Shown here piece after piece: positions 2,156-12,595 of a stretch of 64,000 bases of DNA (positions within the stretch are counted from its first letter, which is position 1; each line of letters starts with the position of its first letter). Source of the stretch: Paraburkholderia agricolaris (lineage in GTDB: Bacteria > Pseudomonadota > Gammaproteobacteria > Burkholderiales > Burkholderiaceae). The position numbers and the translations under genes were made by a program. The notes under the pieces are model-generated. The model was not told the origin of the DNA, made no database searches, and saw only the letters and a program-made list of their open reading frames with translations. Location of the stretch: the NCBI RefSeq assembly GCF_009455635.1, contig NZ_QPER01000001.1, positions 2,232,001 through 2,296,000 on the forward strand. The letters are read 5' to 3'.

Positions 2156-2184
2156 TTGACAACCGTTTTTTTGGCGCTTTAACC
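2156..2184 (+). promoter_or_regulatory. Predicted sigma-70 promoter of the amidase operon
   Basis: A perfect TTGACA box (2156-2161) is followed after 17 bases by TTAACC, or after 18 by TAACCT. Transcription would start near 2190, just before the structured leader. The -10 box is weak, which suits an operon controlled mainly after initiation. Inferred by eye. Confidence 0.5.
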
Positions 2185-2206
2185 TAGCGCTACGCAATTA
2201 CATTTC

Positions 2207-2251
2207 GTACCCGTCGCCAACATTGCCGACGAGGTACAAGGCAAAAATGCC
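2207..2251 (+). promoter_or_regulatory. Candidate ANTAR-responsive dual-hairpin leader
   Basis: Two hairpins lie in tandem. Hairpin 1 (2207-2237) pairs GTACC/GGTAC and CGTCG/CGACG and closes with C-G around a six-base loop AACATT. Hairpin 2 (2240-2251) pairs GGC/GCC around a six-base loop AAAAAT. Two stem-loops with hexanucleotide loops are the known target of ANTAR antiterminators such as AmiR, which is encoded at the end of this operon. The 3' arm of hairpin 2 is also the 5' arm of the terminator, so the two structures exclude each other. Both loops have A at position 1 but A rather than the usual G at position 4, so assignment is tentative. Confidence 0.6.
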
Positions 2252-2290
2252 CTGTGCAGACGCTCACCCGTCTGCCCGGGGCTTTTTTTT
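2249..2290 (+). terminator. Intrinsic terminator in amidase leader
   Basis: GCAGACG (2256-2262) pairs with CGTCTGC (2269-2275) across the loop CTCACC. An outer GCCC/GGGC stem extends it, and eight T residues follow (2283-2290). It lies 130 bases before the first gene of the operon, where a terminator makes sense only as an attenuator relieved by AmiR. Confidence 0.85.
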
Positions 2291-2420: not shown

Positions 2421-3611
2421 ATGACCAGTATCAATCGCCGACGTTTTCTGCAACTGGGCGGAACCGCCGTTGCCGCGACCGCATTGCCTTCTGCCACGCT
2501 CTGGTCCGGTCGCGCTTTTGCTGCCGAGCCGGTCAAGCTTGGGTTGCTGCATTCGCTGACCGGCACGATCGCGATTGCCGAGGCGGCACTCGTGGATGCC
2601 GAGAAGCTCGCTGTCGATGAGATCAACGCAGCAGGCGGCGTGCTGGGCCGGCCTATCCAGCCAATTGTCGAAGACGGTGCGAGCGACTGGCCGACCTTTG
2701 CAGAGAAAACCCGCAAGCTGCTGCAACGCGATCGGGTTGCGGCCATCGTCGGCTGCTATACGTCGGCTTCGCGCAAGGCGGTGTTGCCCATTCTCAACCA
2801 GCATCACGGCCTGCTGTACTACCCGACCTACTACGAAGGCCAGGAGCAGGACTCCCAGGTGATCTACACGTCGCAGGAAGCGACCCAGTCGGTGATCGCT
2901 GCCATCCAGTGGATGGCCACGCAGCAAGGCAAGACGTTCTTCCTTGTTGGCTCCGACTATATCTATCCGCGCACCTGCAACAAGATCGCACGACCAACCA
3001 TCGCCCGTGTCGGGGGCACCGTGGTGGGCGAGGAGTATGCGCCGCTTGGCAACACCGAGTTCTCGTCGATCATCAACAAGATCAAGGCCGCCAAACCCGA
3101 CTGGATTTACTCGACGGTGGTAGGCGGCAGTAATGTCGCGTTCTACAAGCAGTTGAAAGCGGCGGGACTCGACGGACAGCAGCAGAAGCTGCTGTCCACC
3201 GTGGTTTCGGAGAACGAGATCGACGGTATCGGCCGCGAGAACGCCGTGGGCTACTACGCGTGCATGGGGTATTTCCAGAGCCTGCAGAATCCGCGCAATG
3301 CCGCCTTCGTCAAGGCGCTCAAAGCGCGGTACGGCCAGAACCGGGTGGTGGGTGACCCGATGGAATGCGCCTACAACTCGGTGTACTTCTGGAAGAAGGC
3401 CGCGGAGAAGGCCCAGTCGTTCGATGTCGACAAGGTGATTGCCGCCTCGTCCGGACTACCACTCGATGCGCCCGAAGGGCAGATCCACATCAACGTCAGC
3501 AATCACCACGTGGCCAAACGCGTGCGTGTCGGCAGGGCGCGTGCGGATGGCCAGTTCGACATCGTCTACGAGTCCGGTCTGATCGAGCCGAATCCGTTCC
3601 CCAAACTGTGA
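2421..3611 (+). CDS. Amide/urea ABC transporter substrate-binding protein
   Basis: A 396-residue periplasmic binding protein of the branched-chain amino acid/urea type (Peripla_BP_5; UrtA/FmdD/AmiC family). The N-terminus carries a twin-arginine signal (NRRRFLQLGG) with a likely cleavage after SGRAFA. Recognisable blocks are LLHSLTGTIAIAE, the AIVGCYTSASRKAVLP loop, YYPTYYEGQE and VGSDYIYP, all shared with UrtA and with AmiC further down this operon. It should capture short amides or urea for the two permeases and two ATPases that follow. AGGAG precedes the ATG at 2421. It is the first gene after the attenuator, so AmiR probably controls the transporter as well as the amidase. Confidence 0.9.
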   Translation: MTSINRRRFLQLGGTAVAATALPSATLWSGRAFAAEPVKLGLLHSLTGTIAIAEAALVDAEKLAVDEINAAGGVLGRPIQPIVEDGASDWPTFAEKTRKLLQRDRVAAIVGCYTSASRKAVLPILNQHHGLLYYPTYYEGQEQDSQVIYTSQEATQSVIAAIQWMATQQGKTFFLVGSDYIYPRTCNKIARPTIARVGGTVVGEEYAPLGNTEFSSIINKIKAAKPDWIYSTVVGGSNVAFYKQLKAAGLDGQQQKLLSTVVSENEIDGIGRENAVGYYACMGYFQSLQNPRNAAFVKALKARYGQNRVVGDPMECAYNSVYFWKKAAEKAQSFDVDKVIAASSGLPLDAPEGQIHINVSNHHVAKRVRVGRARADGQFDIVYESGLIEPNPFPKL

Positions 3612-3631
3612 CGTCCGGAAGCGAGCGACGC

Positions 3632-4537
3632 ATGACACCCGACATCTTCGCAATGCAGCTCTTCAACGGGCTCAGCAGCTTCACCATCCTGTTGCTGATG
3701 GCGCTGGGTCTGGCGATCGTATTCGGCCTGATGGGCGTGATCAACATGGCCCATGGCGAGCTGATGGCGCTCGGCGCGTATATGACTTACCTGACGGCGC
3801 GCTTTTTCGAGCTTTATTTGCCCGGTCTGATGGGCATCTACCTGTTCGTTGCCATTGTCGTGGCGTTCTGTTCGACGTTCGCCTTCGGCTACCTGCTCGA
3901 ACGTCTGTTTATCCGTCACTTCTACGACCGGCCGCTCGACACACTGCTTGCGACCTGGGGGCTGAGCCTGATCCTGCAGCAGGCCTATCGCTCGATTTTC
4001 GGCGCCCAGGAAGTGTCGAGTCCGCTGACCGCCTGGTTGAGCGGTGCCTGGGAACCGGTGCCGGGGATCCAGTTACCGCTCAACCGGATCTTCATCATCG
4101 GTCTCACCGCGGTGGTTGCATTGTCTGTGTGGGCGATTCTGTACCGCACGCGCTGGGGTCTGAGGGCTCGTGCCGTGACGCAGAACCGCAAGATGAGTTC
4201 GGCGGTCGGTATCGACATTCATCGAGTCGACGCGCTGACGTTTGCACTCGGCTCGGGTCTGGCCGGTATCGCGGGCGCGGCGTTCACGATGATCGGTTCG
4301 ACCAACCCGGGCACCGGCCAGCTCTACATTGTCGACTCGTTCATTGTGGTCGTCTTCGGCGGAATCAGCAGCCTGCTCGGCACCGCTGCATCGGGCTTCG
4401 TGATCGCGCAATCGCAGACCACACTCGAATACCTGATGAGTGGTTCGATGGCGAAGGTGTCGATCATGCTGCTGCTGATCGTGGTGTTGTATTTCCGGCC
4501 GAACGGGTTATTTGTTTCAAAGGTACGGACATCGTGA
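3632..4537 (+). CDS. UrtB/LivH-type ABC permease
   Basis: A 301-residue inner-membrane permease of the branched-chain amino acid/urea importer family. It has about eight hydrophobic segments and the conserved early motif FGLMGVINMAHGELMALGAY. The C-terminal block with VDSFIVVVFGGISSLLGT is also typical. The ATG at 3632 lies 20 bases after the binding-protein stop; the longer open frame from 3365 is out-of-frame overlap. Its TGA overlaps the GTG of the next gene. Confidence 0.9.
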   Translation: MTPDIFAMQLFNGLSSFTILLLMALGLAIVFGLMGVINMAHGELMALGAYMTYLTARFFELYLPGLMGIYLFVAIVVAFCSTFAFGYLLERLFIRHFYDRPLDTLLATWGLSLILQQAYRSIFGAQEVSSPLTAWLSGAWEPVPGIQLPLNRIFIIGLTAVVALSVWAILYRTRWGLRARAVTQNRKMSSAVGIDIHRVDALTFALGSGLAGIAGAAFTMIGSTNPGTGQLYIVDSFIVVVFGGISSLLGTAASGFVIAQSQTTLEYLMSGSMAKVSIMLLLIVVLYFRPNGLFVSKVRTS

Positions 4538-5571
4538 AACTAACCTCGAAAACTCTCTCATGGAGCGCCTGGTTCATCACTGCAGTGGTGCTTCTGCTGG
4601 CGTTTCCGCTATTACTCGAACCGTTCTGGATCGGCGAGTTCGGCAAGTATCTGGCATTCGCGCTGGTGGCGATCGGCATTGTCCTGAGCTGGGGCTACTG
4701 CGGCATCCTGAGCCTTGGACAAGGTATTTTTTTCGGCATTGGTGGCTATGCGATGGCGATGTTCCTGAAGCTGGAAGCGTCCGCGCCGGCGCTGCCCGAT
4801 TTCATGGTGTGGAGCAGCGTCGACAAGCTGCCGTGGTGGTGGGTGCCGTTTGCCCACTTTCCGGTCGCCGTCCTCGCGATCGTGCTGGTGCCCGTGATGG
4901 TCGCGTTTCCCCTTTCGTACGCGCTCTTCATGAAACGCGTGAGCGGCGTCTACTTTGCAATCGTCACGCTGGCCCTTGCCTTGACGATGACGGTGCTGAT
5001 TGTGGGGCAGCAGGGCGACACGGGCGGCGCGAACGGCATCACGGACTTCAAGACCCTGCTTGGCGCCGACGTCATCAGCGATCCGGCCAAGCTGCACATC
5101 TACCTGGTGGAGGCCGTTCTGGTCCTGATCGCCATGGCCTTCGGCAACTGGCTGATCGGTACGCGCTTCGGCAAGATCCTTATCGCCGTGCGTGACCGCG
5201 AAGACCGTGTGCGCTTCTCCGGATACGACACGGCGATGATCAAGGCGTTCGTGTTTGCGGTATCGGCGGTACTGTCGTCGATCGGCGGCGCGCTTTTCAC
5301 GGTGCAGGTCGGACTCGTGAGTCCGAATTCTATCGGGGCGGTTGCCTCGGTGGAGATGGTGATCTACGCAGCGGTTGGTGGACGTCTGTCGGTGTCGGGC
5401 GCGGTGACGGGCGCTGTGGTGGTGGGGTTCATGAAATCGTACCTGTCCGAACGCTTTCCCGAAGCATGGCTGTTCTTCCTCGGCGCCATGTTCATTCTGG
5501 TCGTCGCGGCGATGCCCAGAGGCGTGGCGGGTCTTGCAGAGCGCTTGCTCCACAAGGGGGACGCCGCATGA
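4534..5571 (+). CDS. UrtC/LivM-type ABC permease
   Basis: A 345-residue second permease, LivM/UrtC type. It contains multiple membrane segments, the block ILSWGYCGILSLGQGIFFGIGGYAMAM (residues about 50-75) and the cytoplasmic coupling segment GTRFGKILIAVRDREDRVRFSGYD that contacts the ATPases. The start is a GTG at 4534 overlapping the upstream TGA by four bases, a strong sign of translational coupling. The long frame upstream of this GTG is a shadow of the first permease. Confidence 0.88.
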   Translation: MKLTSKTLSWSAWFITAVVLLLAFPLLLEPFWIGEFGKYLAFALVAIGIVLSWGYCGILSLGQGIFFGIGGYAMAMFLKLEASAPALPDFMVWSSVDKLPWWWVPFAHFPVAVLAIVLVPVMVAFPLSYALFMKRVSGVYFAIVTLALALTMTVLIVGQQGDTGGANGITDFKTLLGADVISDPAKLHIYLVEAVLVLIAMAFGNWLIGTRFGKILIAVRDREDRVRFSGYDTAMIKAFVFAVSAVLSSIGGALFTVQVGLVSPNSIGAVASVEMVIYAAVGGRLSVSGAVTGAVVVGFMKSYLSERFPEAWLFFLGAMFILVVAAMPRGVAGLAERLLHKGDAA

Positions 5572-6371
5572 ACCAGCCTTTACAGGTTGCTGTGCCGCCA
5601 AACAGTCTCGCGGGTAGCGGCACGGTTTCAATGACACACGACAGCATGCTCGACATTGACAACGTGACGGTCTCATTCGACGGCTTCAAGGCGGTCGATT
5701 CGCTATCGCTTCGCATCGACGAACGGGAATTGCGCGTCGTGATTGGGCCGAACGGCGCGGGCAAGACCACCTTGCTCGATCTGATCTGCGGCAAGACGCG
5801 CGCGAGCGCCGGCAGCGTGCGGTTTCGCGGCGTCGAGCTGACCCGCTTGCCGGAATTCCAGATCGTGCGCGCCGGGGTGGGGCGAAAATTCCAGAATCCA
5901 TCGATCTACGAAGACCTGAGCGTTCAGGAAAACCTGGAGATTTCGATTCCGCAGGCACACAGCATCCGCCGCTCGTTGTTCTTTCGCCGCACGCCGGCCG
6001 TTCGTGAGCAGATCGAAGTGGTGGCCGAGCAGATCCGTCTGACGGCACACCTGCGCATGAAGGCCGGACGCCTCTCGCATGGACAGAAGCAGTGGCTCGA
6101 GATCGGCATGCTGCTGGTGCAGAACCCGGCGCTGCTGCTGCTCGACGAACCGGTGGCCGGCATGTCGCCGAAGGAGCGCGAACAGACCGCTGAGTTGCTG
6201 CGCACCATTGCGCTCGGCAAGTCGCTGGTGGTGATCGAACACGACATGGACTTTGTCCGGTCGATCGCGCAGCGTGTCACCGTGCTGCATCAGGGGCGCG
6301 TGCTGGCGGAGGGGGGCATCGACCAGATCCAGGCCGACCCGCGCGTGATTGAAGTGTACCTGGGCCAATGA
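5568..6371 (+). CDS. UrtD/LivG-type ABC ATPase
   Basis: A 267-residue ATP-binding subunit. Walker A is GPNGAGKTT, the signature is LSHGQKQWLE (a usual UrtD variant of LSGGQ), Walker B is LLLLDEP, and the switch His lies in VVIEHDMDFV. The block SIYEDLSVQENLEIS fits the LivG/UrtD group. A 30-residue N-terminal extension precedes the domain; an alternative start is the internal Met at about residue 22. ATG at 5568 overlaps the permease stop. Confidence 0.9.
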   Translation: MNQPLQVAVPPNSLAGSGTVSMTHDSMLDIDNVTVSFDGFKAVDSLSLRIDERELRVVIGPNGAGKTTLLDLICGKTRASAGSVRFRGVELTRLPEFQIVRAGVGRKFQNPSIYEDLSVQENLEISIPQAHSIRRSLFFRRTPAVREQIEVVAEQIRLTAHLRMKAGRLSHGQKQWLEIGMLLVQNPALLLLDEPVAGMSPKEREQTAELLRTIALGKSLVVIEHDMDFVRSIAQRVTVLHQGRVLAEGGIDQIQADPRVIEVYLGQ

Positions 6372-6384
6372 GCGGGGAACGGTC

Positions 6385-7074
6385 ATGTTGAACGTAGCGA
6401 ATCTCAATGTGTACTACGGCGAAAGCCAGGTGATTCATGACGTGTCGCTAAACGTCGGGACAGGGCGTTCACTGGCCCTCGTAGGGCGCAATGGCATGGG
6501 TAAAAGCACCTTGCTCAAAGCGATGATCGGCATGATCGATGCGCGTTCGGGCTCCATCACGCTCGACGGGGTCGAACTCGCGCGCCAGCCGAGCTATCGG
6601 CGCGTCCGCGCGGGTCTCGCGTTCGTGCCGCAGGGCCGGATGATTTTCCCGCAACTGACGGTTGAAGAAAACCTGCTGACCGGTCTCGAAACGGGCCGCT
6701 ACGAAAAAATCCCCGACTTCATTTACGACTTCTTCCCTGTGCTCGCCGAGATGCGCGAGCGCAGGGGCGGCAATCTGTCCGGCGGTCAACAGCAGCAGAT
6801 TGCGATTGCCCGCGCGCTGGTGTCGAAGCCGAGTGTGCTGATCCTCGACGAGCCGACCGAAGGCATCCAGCCTTCGATCGTCAAGGAGATTGCCCGCTCG
6901 CTTACGGCGCTCCGGCGCGAACTGGGCATCGCACTCCTGGTGTCCGAACAGGTTTTGAGTTTTGCGCTCGAACTGGCCGATCGTCTTCTCGTGATCGACG
7001 GCGGACGGATCGTGCGCGAAGCGGATCGCGAAGAGGTGGACCTCGACGAGGTTCGCTCCTTCCTTACGGTGTAA
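6385..7074 (+). CDS. UrtE/LivF-type ABC ATPase
   Basis: A 229-residue second ATP-binding subunit. Walker [10 protein letters not shown], signature LSGGQQQQ and Walker [16 protein letters not shown] are diagnostic of the UrtE branch, where the EGIQPS run is a hallmark. With the upstream UrtD-like protein it would form the heterodimeric motor of the importer. The start at 6385 is 13 bases after the upstream stop with a GGGGAAC ribosome site. It is followed within 30 bases by amiE. Confidence 0.9.
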
Positions 7075-7103
7075 CACCGGCAATCAACGTTGGAGAGACA
7101 GTA

Positions 7104-8141
7104 ATGCGACACGGCGATATTTCGAGCAGCAAGGATTGCGTTGGCGTAGCGGTAGTCAACTACAAGATGCCGAGACTGCACACCAAGGCCGAAGTGCTGG
7201 CAAATGCACGCAAGATTGCGGAGATGGTTACCGGCATGAAGCAGGGGCTGCCGGGCATGGATCTGGTGATTTTTCCGGAGTATTCAACGCACGGCATCAT
7301 GTACGACTCGAAGGAAATGTACGAGACCGCGGCGACCGTCCCCGGCGAGGAAACCGAAATTTTCGCGGCGGCATGCCGCAAGGCCAATGTCTGGGGTGTG
7401 TTCTCCCTCACCGGCGAGCGTCATGAGGAGCATCCGAACAAGGCGCCGTACAACACGCTGATCCTGATGAACAACCAGGGTGAGATCGTGCAGAAGTACC
7501 GCAAGATCATGCCATGGGTGCCGGTCGAAGGCTGGTATCCGGGCGACTGTACCTACGTGTCGGACGGTCCGAAGGGCATGAAGATCAGCCTGATCATTTG
7601 CGACGATGGCAACTATCCGGAGATCTGGCGCGATTGTGCGATGCGTGGGGCTGAGCTGATCGTGCGCTGCCAGGGCTATATGTATCCGGCCAAGGAGCAA
7701 CAGGTGATGGTCGCCAAGACCATGGCATGGATGAACAACACCTACGTTGCGGTGGCCAATGCAACCGGCTGGGACGGCGTCTACTCGTACTTCGGACATT
7801 CGGCGATTGTCGGTTTCGATGGCCGTACGCTCGGGGAGTGTGGCGAAGAGGAGATGGGCGTGCAGTACGCGGAACTGTCGGTGAGCCTGCTTCGCGATGC
7901 ACGCCGCAACATGCAGTCGCAGAACCATCTGTACAAGCTCTTGCACCGCGGTTACACGGGCACGATCAATTCGGGCGAAAACGTGAACGGGGTGGCGGTA
8001 TGCCCATTCAAGTTCTACGGCGACTGGATTCAGGACCCCGAGGGCACCCGCAAGGCGGTCGAAGCAATCACGCGTTCAGCGCCAGGTACGCCTGAATGTC
8101 CGATCGAGGGCATCCCGACAGAAGTCCCGTCTCATCGCTAA
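7104..8141 (+). CDS. amiE: Aliphatic amidase
   Basis: A 345-residue nitrilase-superfamily amidase, almost the same length as Pseudomonas aeruginosa AmiE (346). It hydrolyses short aliphatic amides such as acetamide to the acid and ammonia in the cytoplasm. The catalytic triad of the family is present: Glu59 in FPEYSTHG, the Lys in KYRKIMPW (about 134) and the Cys in [11 protein letters not shown] (about 166). The start ATGCGACACGGCGAT matches the conserved [10 protein letters not shown]-terminus and follows a GGAGAGAC ribosome site. It lies directly behind the importer genes and ahead of an AAA/VWA pair, with its regulators amiC and amiR at the operon end. Confidence 0.97.
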
Positions 8142-8163
8142 CCTTGCGGTACGAAGCCACGCT

Positions 8164-8973
8164 ATGGATGAACGTATCAAACCCTATCTGATTGCGAGCG
8201 AGCCGTACTACCGGCCTGCCGGGCGCGAGGTCGAGTTGTTCGAGGCGGCCTATGCGCGCCGTATGCCGATCATTCTCAAGGGGCCAACAGGCTGCGGCAA
8301 GACGCGTTTCATCGAGTATATGGCGTGGCGACTGCGCAAACCGCTGATCGCGATTGCCTGTAACGAGGATCTGAGCGCATCGGATCTGGTGGGCCGCTTT
8401 CTGCTGGACGCAAACGGCACAGTCTGGCACGACGGTCCCCTGACTACCGCGGTGCGCTGCGGCGCGATCTGCTATCTCGACGAGGTGGTGGAAGCACGTG
8501 CCGACACGACCGTGGTGATCCATCCGCTGGCGGATCACCGCCGCGCGTTGCCGCTCGACCGGCGCGGCGAACTGGTGCTCGCGCATGCGGACTTTCAACT
8601 GGTGATGTCGTATAACCCAGGCTATCAGAGCAGCGCGAAAGACCTGAAGATGTCCACCCGGCAGCGCTTCGGCGCACTCGATTTTCACTATCCGCATAAG
8701 GAAATCGAAACCGAGATCGTGATGCGGGAGGGGGCGGTCGATAGCGATACGGCGACTCGTCTCGTCGGGATTGCCCGGCAGTCGCGCGAACTGCGCGGCC
8801 GTGCGCTGGACGAGGGCATCTCCACGCGCATGCTGATTCATGCCGCCGGGCTGATCAGCCAGGGTATCGATCCGCACGCTGCCTGCCGGATCGCGATGAC
8901 GCGTCCCATCAGTGACGAGGAGGACGTGCTGCACGCGCTGGACGGTTTTGTGGAGGCGCACTTTGGAACGTGA
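8164..8973 (+). CDS. MoxR-type AAA+ ATPase (CbbQ/NorQ-like)
   Basis: A 269-residue AAA+ ATPase of the MoxR group, close in layout to CbbQ/NirQ/NorQ. Walker A is GPTGCGKT (residues 40-47), Walker B is ICYLDEV, and the later LVMSYNPGYQ and STRQRF blocks carry sensor 1 and the arginine finger region typical of NorQ. Such ATPases work with a VWA partner to remodel or activate a metalloenzyme or membrane complex. The partner overlaps this gene's end. In the P. aeruginosa ami operon the equivalent slot holds AmiB, a Clp-like ATPase, so this is either a replacement for AmiB or a separate activase. Target unknown. Confidence 0.88.
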   Translation: MDERIKPYLIASEPYYRPAGREVELFEAAYARRMPIILKGPTGCGKTRFIEYMAWRLRKPLIAIACNEDLSASDLVGRFLLDANGTVWHDGPLTTAVRCGAICYLDEVVEARADTTVVIHPLADHRRALPLDRRGELVLAHADFQLVMSYNPGYQSSAKDLKMSTRQRFGALDFHYPHKEIETEIVMREGAVDSDTATRLVGIARQSRELRGRALDEGISTRMLIHAAGLISQGIDPHAACRIAMTRPISDEEDVLHALDGFVEAHFGT

Positions 8974-10690
8974 CGTGGGCGTGTCCGGGGAAGGGTGGGT
9001 GTGTGCATTGCCGCATGGCGCGCCCGACGGTGCCGGTGTGTCGATCGAGGCGTTGGCGTTGTACGCGCGCGGCTTTGGCCTGGGCAGCATCAACGTCGAT
9101 ACGTTTGCAGAAGACGACAAGGGAACGCATGGTCCCGTTCGCGCGGCGCTCACACGGACCTCGATCATCCTGCCGCCGTCCACGCTTGACAGCGATGCAC
9201 GCGGCCTCGCCAACGCAACGCTTGCGCATGCGTTCGGTCATCTTCGTTATTCGACCTCAGACCGTCCTGTTGAGAAGCGCAAGCCGTTGCTGGTGGCGAT
9301 GCTTTCGCTGATCGAGGATGCACGTGTCGAGTGCCTGATGATGCGCGACTACCCCGGTCTGCGAGTGCTATGGGGCCGGTTTCATCGTGCGAGCGCTGTG
9401 CGATACGCAGAGGGGCTGAGTTTTTCAGCGCTGGCCGCGCGTCTTGGCTGGGCGTTGCATGAACCCGCGTACATTGATCCGCATCACTGGGTCAACAAGG
9501 GCCGCGAGTTGTTCTACGCGGCATGCCGTGACCTTCATGAAGTTGTCCATTTTGAAGAGGCTGCCGCGATTCTCGCGAACGACCTCGGCCAGATGCGCGT
9601 GCGCCTCGACGCGTCGTCCTATCAGGTCGAGCCGCCGTATCGTGATGACAACAGCTTCCTGTGGCGGTTCGACGAGACGGAACCGGTCAATGTCGCGCGC
9701 ACCGAAAGCGGGGAGCTGTGTGGCGGGGCGGAACTCGGCACGAGCGACGAAGCCGACTTGCGTAACTCCGGCGCGACCGTGCAACAGGAGGTCGTGACTC
9801 GCCTGTATCCGGAATGGAACTACCGCACTGAGACGCTGCGTGAAGACTGGGTCACCGTCGTGGAAGGCGCGGCGCCGCTGGAGTCGCCGGCGTGCGCCGG
9901 GCAGCAGCATACTCTCCGGCCGTCGTCCGGCCCGAGTCAGCGGCTCCAGCCGAGGTGGCGGCAGACTTTCAGCGCACGGCGTCTGAGACGTCAGATCGAT
10001 GGTGACGATTTTGATCTGGACGCGTTGATCGAGCATATGAGCGCGCGGCGCGGCAAGCGGGAGCCGGATGGCCGCGTTTATACCCGCGCGGGCCGTGAAC
10101 CGCGTCCCGCCTCGGTGCTCCTGCTGCTGGATCTGTCGATGTCCACCGGGCGGCAGGTCGACGCCTCGGCGTTGAGCCTGCTGGATCGCGAGAAGATTGC
10201 AGCCGAGCGCATCGCTTCGGCGTTCGATGGTGCCCGCCACCGCATTGCCCTGCATGGTTTTGCGTCGAACGGCCGGTCCGCGGTACGTTATGTGAAGCTG
10301 AAGGAATTCGGCACACCGTATGCCGCGCCACAGCGCCAGCGCTTGCACGCGCTGCGTCCGGCATGGTCGACGCGTATCGGTGCTGCACTGCGTCATGCGG
10401 GGCATTGCCTTGCACGTGAAACCAATGCGTCAAAGAGCATTCTGCTCGTCACAGATGGCGAGCCCTCGGACATCGACGTGTTCGATCCGCGCTATCTGCT
10501 CGAGGACGCCCGTCACGCCGTGCAGATGCTGGACGCGCAAGGCATCCGGACGCATTGCATCAGCCTCGATGACGAGGCGCATGCGGCGGTCGCATCGATT
10601 TTCGGGCATGGCAACTGTGCGACTCTGCCGCACGGCAGTGGTTTGAGCGCCGCCCTTGAGCGCGTGCTGGCGAAGGTTGCGGGGCGATGA
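8963..10690 (+). CDS. VWA-domain protein (NorD/CobT-like)
   Basis: A protein of about 575 residues whose C-terminal third is a von Willebrand factor A domain. The MIDAS motif is LLLDLSMST with the later LLVTDGEPSD block, as in NorD, CbbO and CobT, the usual partners of NorQ/CbbQ ATPases. The N-terminal part is helical, with GLANATLAHAFGHLRYS resembling NorD. The start is uncertain: TTG at 8963 has a GGAGG six bases upstream; a GTG at 8975 is an alternative. Either way it overlaps the ATPase gene, so the two are translated together. It probably recruits the substrate for the ATPase. Confidence 0.85.
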   Translation: MERDVGVSGEGWVCALPHGAPDGAGVSIEALALYARGFGLGSINVDTFAEDDKGTHGPVRAALTRTSIILPPSTLDSDARGLANATLAHAFGHLRYSTSDRPVEKRKPLLVAMLSLIEDARVECLMMRDYPGLRVLWGRFHRASAVRYAEGLSFSALAARLGWALHEPAYIDPHHWVNKGRELFYAACRDLHEVVHFEEAAAILANDLGQMRVRLDASSYQVEPPYRDDNSFLWRFDETEPVNVARTESGELCGGAELGTSDEADLRNSGATVQQEVVTRLYPEWNYRTETLREDWVTVVEGAAPLESPACAGQQHTLRPSSGPSQRLQPRWRQTFSARRLRRQIDGDDFDLDALIEHMSARRGKREPDGRVYTRAGREPRPASVLLLLDLSMSTGRQVDASALSLLDREKIAAERIASAFDGARHRIALHGFASNGRSAVRYVKLKEFGTPYAAPQRQRLHALRPAWSTRIGAALRHAGHCLARETNASKSILLVTDGEPSDIDVFDPRYLLEDARHAVQMLDAQGIRTHCISLDDEAHAAVASIFGHGNCATLPHGSGLSAALERVLAKVAGR

Positions 10691-10745
10691 AATCGGCCGC
10701 GGGTTTCTTTCTGCGCGTGGCTTTGCGTTACGATAGCTTGCGAAG

Positions 10746-10760
10746 CCGGCTAGCAGCCGG
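10746..10760 (+). promoter_or_regulatory. Small hairpin before amiC
   Basis: CCGGC and GCCGG flank TAGCA just upstream of the amiC ribosome site. There is no T tract, so it is not an intrinsic terminator; it may stabilise or modulate the amiC message. Seen directly; role inferred. Confidence 0.3.
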
Positions 10761-10786
10761 TCCTAACGAGCTGAGGATTTAACATC

Positions 10787-11941
10787 GTGGCACACACTGA
10801 CCCTGTCAAAGTGGGCGTGCTGTACTCAGAGACCGGCGTGACGTCGTCGATCGAATCGTCGCAGTTGTTCGGCACGCTATTCGCTATCGATCAGATCAAC
10901 CACGCCGGCGGCATCAATGGACGCGAGATCGTGCCAGTGCGCTACGATCCTCGCTCCGAGCCACGCGTCTATAGCCAGCTAGCCGAGCGCCTGATTACCA
11001 GCGACAACGTCAAGGTAATCTTTGGGTGCTATATGTCCAGCACCCGCAAGGCGGTCATTCCGGTCGTCGAGCGCTGGAACCGCCTGTTGTTCTATTCGAC
11101 TCTGTACGAGGGGTTCGAATTTTCCGAGCACCTGATCTACACGGGCGCGGCGCCGAACCAGAATAGCGTGCAACTCGCCGAGTTCATGACGTCGTCGTTC
11201 GGACCGCGCGTCTATCTGGTCGGCTCCGACTATATCTATCCCTACGAGTCGAACCGCATCATGGCAGACCTCGTGAGCCAGCATCCTGGTGGTGAGAAGG
11301 TCGGTGAGCGCTATGTGCCGCTTAACGCATCCGAGGAGGATTTTGCTGACGTGCTAGCCGATATCCGCATTGTGAAGCCCGACTTCATTTTCTCTACCGT
11401 GGTCGGCAATGCGACGCAAAACTTTTATCGCGCGTATGCGCGGGCGGGCTTTGATCCGGACAGGTTGCCTATCGGCAGCCTCACTACCACCGAAGTCGAG
11501 ATCGCGCAGATGGGCGGAGAAATCGCGGCCGGACACTACACCTCGGCGCCATATTTCCAATCGATCGACAGCGACCTCAATCGTGCCTGCCTCGCACGCT
11601 TTCGCGAGGGATTCGGTGAGCAGATCGCACCGAATGCGTGTTGGGAAGCCGCCTACTTCCAGGTCCACCTGTTTGCCAACGCCATGCGTGCGAGCGGCAG
11701 CGACGATATCGATGCGCTGATGCCCGCTTTGCTAGGGGCGAGTATCGACGCGCCGCAAGGACAGGTCCGCATCGAACCGTCGAACCATCACGCGTCTCTG
11801 TATCCGCGTATCGGCCAGGCCAATGCAAACGGACAATTCACGATCCTGCGCGAAACGCGCAACGCTGTGTATCCGGACCCGTATCTCGTCGCGCATTCGC
11901 TAGGCGACTGGACGCTCCGTATGACCCCGGTGGAGAATTGA
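10787..11941 (+). CDS. amiC: AmiC amide sensor, negative regulator of AmiR
   Basis: A 384-residue cytoplasmic ligand-binding protein without a signal peptide (P. aeruginosa AmiC is 385). AmiC holds the antiterminator AmiR inactive and releases it when an amide binds. The fold is that of periplasmic binding proteins: VGVLYSETGVTSSIE, the GCYMSSTRKAVIP loop, FYSTLYEGFE and VGSDYIYPYESNRI all parallel the transport binding protein at the front of this operon, so the two are paralogues. Start is GTG at 10787 with GAGGATT upstream. The TGA stop is directly followed by the amiR ATG. Confidence 0.93.
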   Translation: MAHTDPVKVGVLYSETGVTSSIESSQLFGTLFAIDQINHAGGINGREIVPVRYDPRSEPRVYSQLAERLITSDNVKVIFGCYMSSTRKAVIPVVERWNRLLFYSTLYEGFEFSEHLIYTGAAPNQNSVQLAEFMTSSFGPRVYLVGSDYIYPYESNRIMADLVSQHPGGEKVGERYVPLNASEEDFADVLADIRIVKPDFIFSTVVGNATQNFYRAYARAGFDPDRLPIGSLTTTEVEIAQMGGEIAAGHYTSAPYFQSIDSDLNRACLARFREGFGEQIAPNACWEAAYFQVHLFANAMRASGSDDIDALMPALLGASIDAPQGQVRIEPSNHHASLYPRIGQANANGQFTILRETRNAVYPDPYLVAHSLGDWTLRMTPVEN

Positions 11942-12595
11942 ATGCGCACCAACGATGAAGGTGTCCGCGGCGGTACCGACGCGATATCCTCGTCGACTCG
12001 TGCCGGCTCGCAGGTTCTGAGGGATCTGCGTTCGCTGCATGTGTGCGTATTTCATCCGCACGATCGCGACGGCGAATTGCTGATGCAACAGTTGCAGCGA
12101 ATCGGTTGCCAGGTACATTGTTTCTGGCCGCCGCTCGATACACCCGTGCCGGGCAGCGATCTGGTGTTCATTGGCTTGTATCCCGATACCATCACCTACG
12201 ATTTCGCGTGGTGCGATGCCGACGATGCTCCCTCGGTGGTCGCCGTGGTCAATTACGAGAATCCGACCATTATCGACGCCGTGCTGCGAGTCGGCGCGAA
12301 GGCGATCGTCGCGGCACCTGTACGTTCATTCGGTGTATTGAGTGCGCTTGTGCTGGCCCGCCAGATATCGGGCGATCTGAAGAAGCTCAACAAACGTATC
12401 GCGCGGCTTGAAGAGCGGGTTTATGGCGCTCGCAAGATCGCTGAAGCGCAGGAAATCCTGATGCGGCAGCATGGCATCAGCAAGCCGGAGGCGTACAAAG
12501 CCATTCGCGATCAGGCGATGGGCAAACGCGTGTCGGTCGAAGAGATCGCGTCTGCGATCGTCGCGGCTGACGAGATACTCTCAATTGGGCGTTAG
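11942..12595 (+). CDS. amiR: AmiR ANTAR-domain antiterminator
   Basis: A 217-residue RNA-binding antiterminator. It has an N-terminal pseudo-receiver domain (LHVCVFHPHDRDGELLMQQL onward), a coiled coil (about residues 140-165) and a C-terminal ANTAR three-helix domain with AQEILMRQHGISKPEAYKAI and the conserved Ala/aromatic positions. It should bind the dual-hairpin leader of this operon and prevent termination at 2249-2290 when amides free it from AmiC. The first 20 residues extend beyond the P. aeruginosa protein (196). The gene starts at the base after the amiC stop. Confidence 0.93.
   Translation: MRTNDEGVRGGTDAISSSTRAGSQVLRDLRSLHVCVFHPHDRDGELLMQQLQRIGCQVHCFWPPLDTPVPGSDLVFIGLYPDTITYDFAWCDADDAPSVVAVVNYENPTIIDAVLRVGAKAIVAAPVRSFGVLSALVLARQISGDLKKLNKRIARLEERVYGARKIAEAQEILMRQHGISKPEAYKAIRDQAMGKRVSVEEIASAIVAADEILSIGR

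What the first reader, a model, noticed from the sequence alone, without database searches (positions are those of the whole stretch)
8164..10690. MoxR-type AAA ATPase and VWA partner inside an aliphatic-amidase operon
NorQ/NorD and CbbQ/CbbO pairs activate metalloenzymes or Rubisco. Here a pair of that type, overlapping and co-translated, sits between amiE and amiC, where Pseudomonas has the Clp-like AmiB. AmiE needs no known activase, so the target could be the amidase, the importer or an unlinked enzyme. This function appears undescribed to my knowledge.
Basis: partly seen in the sequence, partly recalled or inferred. Interest (0 to 1): 0.72.

Follow-up and report, generated by a model that had tools for sequence, protein, structure and literature searches.

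The report
Rubisco-activase-like machine for an amidase
A bacterial amide-digesting enzyme appears to be serviced by an ATP-driven protein machine closely related to one that repairs the carbon-fixing enzyme Rubisco, and it carries the same two-residue tag at its tail end that the Rubisco machine reads.

Summary
Confirmed: window 8164-8973 encodes a CbbQ/NorQ-type AAA+ ATPase and 8963-10690 a NorD/CbbO-type VWA protein, in a urt-amiE-AAA-VWA-amiC-amiR operon. Of the 80 best relatives of the VWA gene, 73 share a locus with amiE and the AAA. Among 80 amiE loci sampled from genomes, Clp-like AmiB never co-occurs with the pair. New here: AmiE's tail tracks the partner. Partner-linked AmiEs have penultimate His in 129 of 129 and end H-R/K in 124 of 129; the others in 4 and 3 of 52. 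Of 13 independent tree contrasts, 11 agree, 0 oppose, 2 tie. A set fetched later split 15/15 against 0/13. The same C-terminal HK/R motif is the published tag of Rubiscos activated by CbbQO (PMC4660213); there too the last residue is replaceable and the penultimate His hardly. None of 828 proteins of 12 neighbouring families ends so. AmiE itself, not importer or urease, is therefore very probably the client of a CbbQO-type machine. Binding, and what is repaired (inhibited active site or assembly), are inferred. One 2026 paper mentions such a pair without mechanism.

The parts
2156..2290 (+). Operon leader: TTGACA -35-like box at 2156 and an intrinsic-terminator-like hairpin 2249-2282 followed by eight T, upstream of urtA; candidate AmiR antitermination target
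   Evidence: hairpin -22.8 kcal/mol; the ANTAR hexaloop pattern that I tried was not found; role inferred
2421..3611 (+). UrtA-like substrate-binding protein of a urea/amide ABC importer
   Evidence: TIGR03407 500 bits, cut-off 492.75
3509..4537 (+). UrtB permease (start uncertain)
   Evidence: TIGR03409 386 bits
4540..5571 (+). UrtC permease (start uncertain)
   Evidence: TIGR03408 405 bits
5565..6371 (+). UrtD ATP-binding protein (start uncertain)
   Evidence: TIGR03411 370 bits
6385..7074 (+). UrtE ATP-binding protein
   Evidence: TIGR03410 321 bits
7104..8141 (+). AmiE aliphatic amidase, the proposed client; E59, K134 and C166 (the E-K-C triad, as recalled) are invariant in 24 aligned AmiEs; ends ...VPSHR
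8133..8138 (+). Last two codons of amiE: C-terminal His344-Arg345, the proposed recognition tag
   Evidence: matches the HK/R motif of PMC4660213
8164..8973 (+). CbbQ/NorQ-type AAA+ ATPase: Walker A GPTGCGKT at 8281, GRxLLxxxxT motif at 8392, Walker B AICYLDE at 8464
8963..10690 (+). NorD/CbbO-type adaptor: helical N-terminal domain, low-confidence linker, beta hairpin, C-terminal VWA domain with MIDAS (DLSMS at 10130, T of WSTR at 10364, D of TDGEPSD at 10451)
   Evidence: start
10787..11941 (+). AmiC-like amide sensor (Peripla_BP_5)
11942..12595 (+). AmiR antiterminator (AmiR_N + ANTAR)

Best explanation
The AAA and VWA proteins form a CbbQO/NorQD-type ATP-driven remodelling complex whose client is the neighbouring amidase AmiE. 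The VWA protein is the adaptor: it recognises AmiE through the free C-terminal His-Arg/Lys dipeptide and, by analogy, through a MIDAS contact to an acidic surface residue. The AAA hexamer turns ATP hydrolysis into a pull or twist on AmiE that restores or completes its active form: an 'amidase activase'. Shown: conserved linkage, mutual exclusion with AmiB, and coupling of the AmiE C-terminal tag to the partner. Inferred: physical binding, the MIDAS contact, ATP use and the benefit. The benefit I think most likely is release of a dead-end ligand from the active site; urea or another non-hydrolysed amide analogue is a guess, since the operons import urea-like compounds. Assembly of the AmiE oligomer is the alternative. 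The confidence is for AmiE being the client of a remodelling machine that reads the tag.
For: Linkage: 73 of the 80 best loci of the VWA scan hold AmiE, AAA and VWA. Tag: penultimate His in 129 of 129 partner-linked AmiEs (one of them, L125, with only the AAA before a contig end) against 4 of 52 others; H-R/K in 124 of 129 against 3 of 52; 13 edge-disjoint contrasts on a tree built without the C-terminal end gave 11 in the predicted direction, 0 against, 2 ties. A set fetched after the tag was seen gave 15 of 15 against 0 of 13 (Fisher 2.7e-8). Published rule for CbbQO: the Rubisco large subunit ends HK/R; removing one or two residues or adding one Ala abolishes activation; the last residue is replaceable, the penultimate His only in part (PMC4660213, passages); form IA Rubiscos without cbbQO lack the motif and generally end earlier (PMC8718961 section 7). 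All five departures from H-R/K among partner-linked AmiEs are changes of the last residue only (HQ, HA, HA, HH, HS). Of ten CbbL in loci with a VWA match, 7 end H-K/R and 3 end NR. Specificity: 0 of 828 proteins of 12 other families in VWA+ loci end H-R/K. Adaptor role of the VWA protein: 9 sampled loci have VWA (8 of them 27-325 nt after amiE) without a linked AAA; all 9 genomes carry a strong CbbQ_C gene elsewhere, against 16 of 39 AmiE genomes of the none and AmiB types.
Against: 26 of 79 typed AmiE loci have no linked partner of either kind, so the enzyme class does not need one. P. aeruginosa amidase is active when made alone in E. coli (recalled). No acidic residue specific to partner-linked AmiEs was found that could be the MIDAS ligand. 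G650 has an H-R AmiE but neither VWA nor CbbQ_C in a 95%-complete genome; G036 and G080 have H-R AmiEs without a linked pair. Those two do carry VWA genes elsewhere, but so do 15 other genomes of the 39 without linked pair, whose AmiEs lack H-R/K, so a VWA gene elsewhere does not predict the tag. L156 and L157 are close relatives of the pair in genomes without AmiE at E<=1e-100. No complex was modelled, and the AmiE model is poor (pLDDT 69).
Confidence: 0.72

Rival explanations
1. AmiE is the client, but the machine serves folding or oligomer assembly, or controlled inactivation, rather than reactivation of an inhibited enzyme.
For: Relatives do different jobs: NorQD inserts iron into cNOR (passages of PMC9976466 and PMC13036017), CbbQO releases inhibitors. 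In other loci the slot is held by AmiB, an AAA_2 + ClpB_D2-small protein (13 of 79 typed), related to unfoldases.
Against: In the passages read neither CbbQO nor NorQD is a degradation unit. No protease gene is annotated in the ten annotated plasmid stretches with the pair or VWA; most other loci were not annotated, so a protease is not excluded there. AmiE without a linked partner is common (26 of 79), which argues against a strict need in assembly.
Confidence: 0.3
2. The client is the nickel enzyme urease, which lies in some of the same clusters.
For: In 11 of 79 typed AmiE loci the AAA lies 5.2-5.9 kb after amiE and UreC is in the locus; UreD, and in L122 also UreC, were confirmed by Pfam between them in the two checked, L120 and L122. 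L156 has urease plus the pair and its genome lacks AmiE at the cut used.
Against: Only 13 of the 80 VWA-scan loci hold UreC, none of them without AmiE; 60 have AmiE without UreC. 0 of 35 UreC in VWA+ loci end H-R/K. The window genome's urease is 1.5 Mb away.
Confidence: 0.07
3. The client is the Urt-type amide/urea importer or the AmiC sensor.
For: 51 of the 73 AmiE loci of the VWA scan also hold UrtB or UrtC (22 do not).
Against: 22 of 73 lack UrtB/C, and urt genes are also usual without the pair (35 of 39 none/AmiB loci flagged by a loose rule that AmiC can trigger). 0 of 497 UrtA-E and AmiC in VWA+ loci end H-R/K.
Confidence: 0.05
4. The C-terminal tag is only a marker of descent: H-R/K AmiEs and the pair travel together in one operon without functional contact.
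For: AmiE, AAA and VWA are often adjacent and occur on plasmids.
Against: 11 of 11 informative independent contrasts agree (sign test 0.001). The tag is kept where urease genes separate amiE from the pair and where the AAA is not linked. Neighbouring operon proteins show no such tail. The motif equals an experimentally supported CbbQO tag on an unrelated fold.
Confidence: 0.1

Closest known systems
CbbQ-CbbO Rubisco activase (Tsai et al. 2015, PMC4660213)
   Same: AAA+ of the same family (379 bits to 5c3c), VWA adaptor with MIDAS, client with C-terminal H-K/R, penultimate His more constrained than the last residue; CbbQ and CbbO branch among AmiE-linked proteins in my trees
   Different: Client is a nitrilase-superfamily amidase; no Rubisco gene linked (0 of 80 VWA-scan loci hold CbbL); window VWA protein is about 575 aa against about 770 aa for CbbO
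NorQ-NorD of nitric oxide reductase (PMC9976466, PMC13036017)
   Same: AAA with the GRxLLxxxxT motif, VWA with MIDAS; NorD chains are the six best Foldseek hits of the VWA model
   Different: NorQD inserts iron into a membrane metalloenzyme; AmiE is a thiol enzyme with no known metal (recalled; the review PMC10781810 says the H. pylori amidases hold no metal). The sequence match to NorD covers only the C-terminal half
AmiB of Pseudomonas-type ami operons (recalled: Wilson et al. 1995; the name amiEBCRS is in an abstract listed)
   Same: AAA+ ATPase directly downstream of amiE (0-122 nt in 13 of 13 sampled)
   Different: AAA_2 + ClpB_D2-small, not AAA_5 + CbbQ_C (three checked); no VWA partner in the 13 loci; its AmiEs have other tails
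P. veronii Yu15 plasmid ami operon (PMC13209695, 2026)
   Same: amiE, amiC, amiR plus CbbQ/NorQ- and NorD-like genes; assembly or activation of the amidase suggested
   Different: In the passages read: one locus with betaproteobacterial homologues noted, no survey, no tag, no mechanism

Membership tests
CbbQO-type MoxR/VWA machine | AAA+ with AAA_5 and CbbQ_C domains, intact Walker A/B | tested here: met
CbbQO-type MoxR/VWA machine | Adjacent VWA protein with complete MIDAS | tested here: met
   D393, S395, S397, T473, D501 invariant in 40 aligned sequences
CbbQO-type MoxR/VWA machine | Client ending in H-K/R with penultimate His conserved | tested here: met
   AmiE; motif from PMC4660213
CbbQO-type MoxR/VWA machine | Acidic surface residue of the client that binds the MIDAS | tested here: inconclusive
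   no D/E column specific to partner-linked AmiEs; generally conserved acidic residues were not examined
CbbQO-type MoxR/VWA machine | ATP-dependent restoration of client activity | not testable with these tools
   needs purified proteins
Rubisco activase proper (CbbQO) | Linked to Rubisco genes | tested here: not met
   CbbL in 0 of 80 VWA-scan loci; amiE in 73. Rubisco elsewhere in the window's genome was not searched
NorQD | NorQ GRxLL/IxxxxT helix-2-insert motif and NorD-like VWA | tested here: met
NorQD | Linked nitric oxide reductase norCB as client | not tested
   none of the ten operon proteins annotated is a NorB/NorC; neither the rest of the window nor the genome was searched for norB
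AmiB | AAA_2 with ClpB_D2-small domain | tested here: not met

The most novel reading that the evidence does not exclude
CbbQO-type machines are a general enzyme-repair system that reads a portable C-terminal tag with a penultimate His on unrelated folds: Rubisco (H-K/R), aliphatic amidase (H-R/K) and, in a third gene cluster with cobalt genes, a tubulin-like protein ending -KAHA. Rooted on NorQD, the Rubisco branch lies inside the amidase-linked radiation, so the Rubisco activase may descend from an amidase-associated machine.
Probability: 0.35. Interest if true: 0.92.

Novelty: new variant of a known kind. Interest (0 to 1): 0.78.

Why it matters
It gives the MoxR/VWA family a client that is unrelated to Rubisco, has no known metal and is cheap to assay, and a simple rule (free C-terminal His-Lys/Arg) by which further clients can be looked for. 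It makes two open questions testable with purified proteins: what the AAA+ partners of aliphatic amidase do (unknown for AmiB too, as far as I recall), and how CbbQO/NorQD-type machines recognise and remodel clients where neither metal insertion nor sugar phosphates are involved.

Tried and rejected
Urease as client: attractive because urease genes lie between amiE and the pair in several genera, but UreC tails and the counts speak against it. Importer or sensor as client: no tag, and urt genes are also usual without the pair. A MIDAS-binding acidic residue specific to partner-linked AmiEs: none found. Apparent absence of AAA in some loci (L015, L192, L193) in the ORF maps was an artefact of my overlap filter; tblastn finds it. 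An unlabelled ORF family (33 loci) vanished when amiE was given priority and is apparently antisense to amiE. The ANTAR hexaloop search upstream of urtA found nothing with the pattern used. Urea as amidase inhibitor: two paper searches and the passages gave only that urea inhibits two formamidases (PMC10781810 citing others); slow urea inhibition of P. aeruginosa amidase (Gregoriou and Brown 1979) is recalled, not seen. Penultimate His alone is less specific than H-R/K: it also occurs in 19 of 92 UrtD, 3 of 140 AAA and 1 of 34 UreG of VWA+ loci. The AmiE model has too low confidence to place the tail.
Full report
What is there. The window carries, on the plus strand, an operon-like run urtA-urtB-urtC-urtD-urtE-amiE-AAA-VWA-amiC-amiR (2421-12595). 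Family searches name the importer genes as urea ABC transporter UrtA-E, amiE as aliphatic amidase (715 bits, cut-off 427), the AAA protein as AAA_5 + CbbQ_C, the VWA protein as VWA_2, and the last two as an AmiC-like binding protein and AmiR. The AAA protein is closest in the PDB to CbbQ (379 and 367 bits) and then NorQ (297 and 293 bits). The profile of the VWA family finds only two NorD sequences at E<=0.001, and NorD chains are the first six Foldseek hits of its model (pLDDT 77). Walker A, Walker B, the NorQ-type GRxLLxxxxT motif and the MIDAS residues are present. The VWA start is best placed at TTG 8963, overlapping the AAA gene by 11 nt with a GGAGG just upstream. A leader with a -35-like box and a strong terminator-like hairpin lies before urtA, which fits AmiR antitermination, though this was not tested.

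Linkage. In 73 of these 80 the locus also encodes AmiE and the AAA protein. Ten of the 73 have amiE on the other strand, two of them right beside the pair and eight about 5.2-5.4 kb away. Of the seven without AmiE, four belong to a different cluster with tubulin-like genes or CobW, and two of the other three (L029, L055) are on contigs under 8 kb. More remote relatives include Rubisco-linked CbbO-like proteins, so the claim is about this branch, not about all NorD-like proteins.

The slot. To avoid starting from the VWA gene, I sampled genomes by AmiE at E<=1e-100: 39 of 300 in the window's order, 15 of 370 in its class, 34 of 397 in its phylum, own genome included in each and some genomes shared. 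All 80 non-own AmiE places were fetched and typed by tblastn with fixed thresholds. Of 79 typed, 30 have AAA and VWA, 9 VWA only, 1 AAA only before a contig end (L125; its genome has a VWA match on another contig), 13 AmiB, and 26 neither. L135, whose amiE lies in two ORFs and fell below the cut, has the pair too. AmiB (AAA_2 + ClpB_D2-small in the three checked) is 0-122 nt downstream of amiE in all 13 and never occurs with AAA or VWA (Fisher 2.6e-5 with L135 counted; relatedness not corrected). In 11 of the pair loci the AAA lies 5.2-5.9 kb after amiE with urease genes in the locus.

VWA without AAA. All 9 VWA-only genomes carry a strong CbbQ_C gene elsewhere. Among 39 AmiE genomes of the none and AmiB types, 16 do above 80 bits (11 of 26 and 5 of 13), and 23 do at the looser E<=0.001. 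This suggests that the VWA protein is the client-specific part and the motor can be borrowed.

The tag. Comparing AmiE columns between groups, the clearest difference that follows the VWA gene is at the C-terminus. Partner-linked AmiEs end in His followed by Arg or Lys; AmiEs without a partner mostly end earlier or in other letters, often -NY; AmiEs with AmiB have another tail. I then fetched loci not used so far: 25 plasmid loci chosen for diversity from 60 listed hits and 7 alphaproteobacterial loci. The listing showed how far each match reached, so I could see a hint of the tail but not the partner when choosing. Of 28 AmiEs above 400 bits, 15 are VWA+ and all end H-R/K; 13 are VWA- and none does; four remote homologues (53-55% identity) also do not. 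Same-genus contrasts: Azospirillum brasilense against an A. oryzae plasmid, Agrobacterium tumefaciens MWF001 against Yub001, Burkholderia arboris against B. cenocepacia and B. vietnamiensis. Over all 181 AmiEs (73 from the VWA scan, 79 sampled, 28 later, the window): penultimate His 129 of 129 partner-linked (L125 counted here) and 4 of 52 others; H-R/K 124 of 129 and 3 of 52. On a tree built without the C-terminal end, 13 edge-disjoint contrasts gave 11 in the expected direction, none against and 2 ties.

What the tag means. Tsai et al. (PMC4660213; passages) found that Rubisco large subunits associated with cbbQ and cbbO share a C-terminal HK/R motif absent from other form I and II sequences. 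Deleting one or two residues or adding one Ala abolished activation and ATPase stimulation; the last residue was replaceable, the penultimate His only in part by aromatic residues. PMC8718961 (section 7 read) adds that carboxysomal form IA Rubiscos without cbbQO in the operon lack the motif and generally end earlier. The amidase data repeat these points: same motif, exceptions only at the last residue, and shorter tails in several AmiEs without the partner. In my own VWA-bearing loci 7 of 10 CbbL end H-K/R and 3 end NR. In VWA+ loci 0 of 828 proteins of 12 other families end H-R/K; penultimate His alone also occurs in 23 of them, 19 being UrtD. That AmiE is a client read by a CbbQO-like machine is therefore the best explanation; binding itself is not shown.

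Mechanism. From CbbQO and NorQD (passages): an AAA hexamer carries one VWA protein; the NorD finger sits in the pore, the MIDAS is thought to bind an acidic residue of the client, and ATP-driven movement strains the client. For AmiE I infer that this opens the active site or its oligomer interface. Why an amidase would need this is not known. The importer, urease and formamidase genes around it suggest exposure to urea and similar compounds; urea inhibits two formamidases (PMC10781810, passage), and slow inhibition of P. aeruginosa amidase by urea is recalled. This last step is a guess.

Phylogeny. In trees of AAA (130 tips) and VWA (93 tips; further VWA ORFs were lost to the motif filter) rooted on NorQ and NorD, CbbQ and CbbO branch among AmiE-linked proteins. 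VWA tree: Rubisco-linked clade 0.994, joined by two AmiE-linked VWA-only proteins at 0.915, then within larger groups at 0.979 and 0.967. AAA tree: the CbbQ-bearing group of 17 with AmiE-linked members has 0.767, the enclosing 31 have 0.917, inner nodes are weak (0.04-0.69 in part). Sampling started from an amidase-linked query, so the direction of descent is tentative.

Against. 26 of 79 typed AmiE loci have no partner. G650 has an H-R AmiE and no VWA or CbbQ_C. G036 and G080 have H-R AmiEs with VWA genes only elsewhere; but 17 of the 39 none/AmiB genomes have a VWA match somewhere and only these two of them carry the tag, so the tag follows linkage, not mere presence. L156 and L157 hold close relatives of the pair in genomes without AmiE at the cut used. 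No acidic residue specific to partner-linked AmiEs was found.

Prior work. One 2026 paper (PMC13209695; passages) notes the pair in a plasmid ami operon and suggests assembly or activation. Searches for amidase with NorQ/NorD, MoxR, CbbQ or CbbO showed me no other description; the library holds only open-licence papers and one search listed 25 of 2,901.

Noticed in passing
L012:960-12803, L018:3015-15850, L024:5067-11617, L010:1-3884, L236:1-6982: A different cluster with a related AAA-VWA pair: tubulin-like proteins in L012, L018, L024 and L236, CobW in L010, L012 and L018, nickel/cobalt transport genes in L018. One tubulin-like protein ends -KAHA in L012, L018, L024 and L236 (penultimate His), so it may be the client there. 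A Rhodococcus plasmid (L247) has tubulin-like and cobalt transporter genes beside amiE.
   Followed up: partly
L150, L153, L177, L179, L181, L182, L183, L186: amiE followed at 27-325 nt by a VWA gene with no AAA gene in the locus; these AmiEs still have a penultimate His.
   Followed up: yes
L187-L189, L209-L218, L244, L247-L249: AmiEs with a neighbouring AmiB gene have their own tail: 16 of 17 contain E-K or E-R near the end; possibly a tag for AmiB, but the 13 sampled ones form one clade. In L247 the AmiB gene is divergent from amiE.
   Followed up: partly
L237:10141-11931: On an Acidithiobacillus caldus plasmid the VWA gene after amiE is annotated as two reading frames near IS elements, apparently decayed or split; AmiE ends -HK.
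   Followed up: no
L233:13199-15154, L234:13205-15154: An acetate-CoA ligase gene (acs) follows the pair in Shinella and Rhizobium etli plasmids, which fits acetamide as natural substrate.
   Followed up: no
L235:9001-18298, L240:9001-19025: amiE, urease genes and the AAA-VWA pair side by side on Ancylobacter and Shinella plasmids.
   Followed up: partly
G000 C2:1817684-1817926 (outside the window, L005): A second, much weaker CbbQ_C match (34 bits) elsewhere in the window's genome; neighbours not examined.
   Followed up: no
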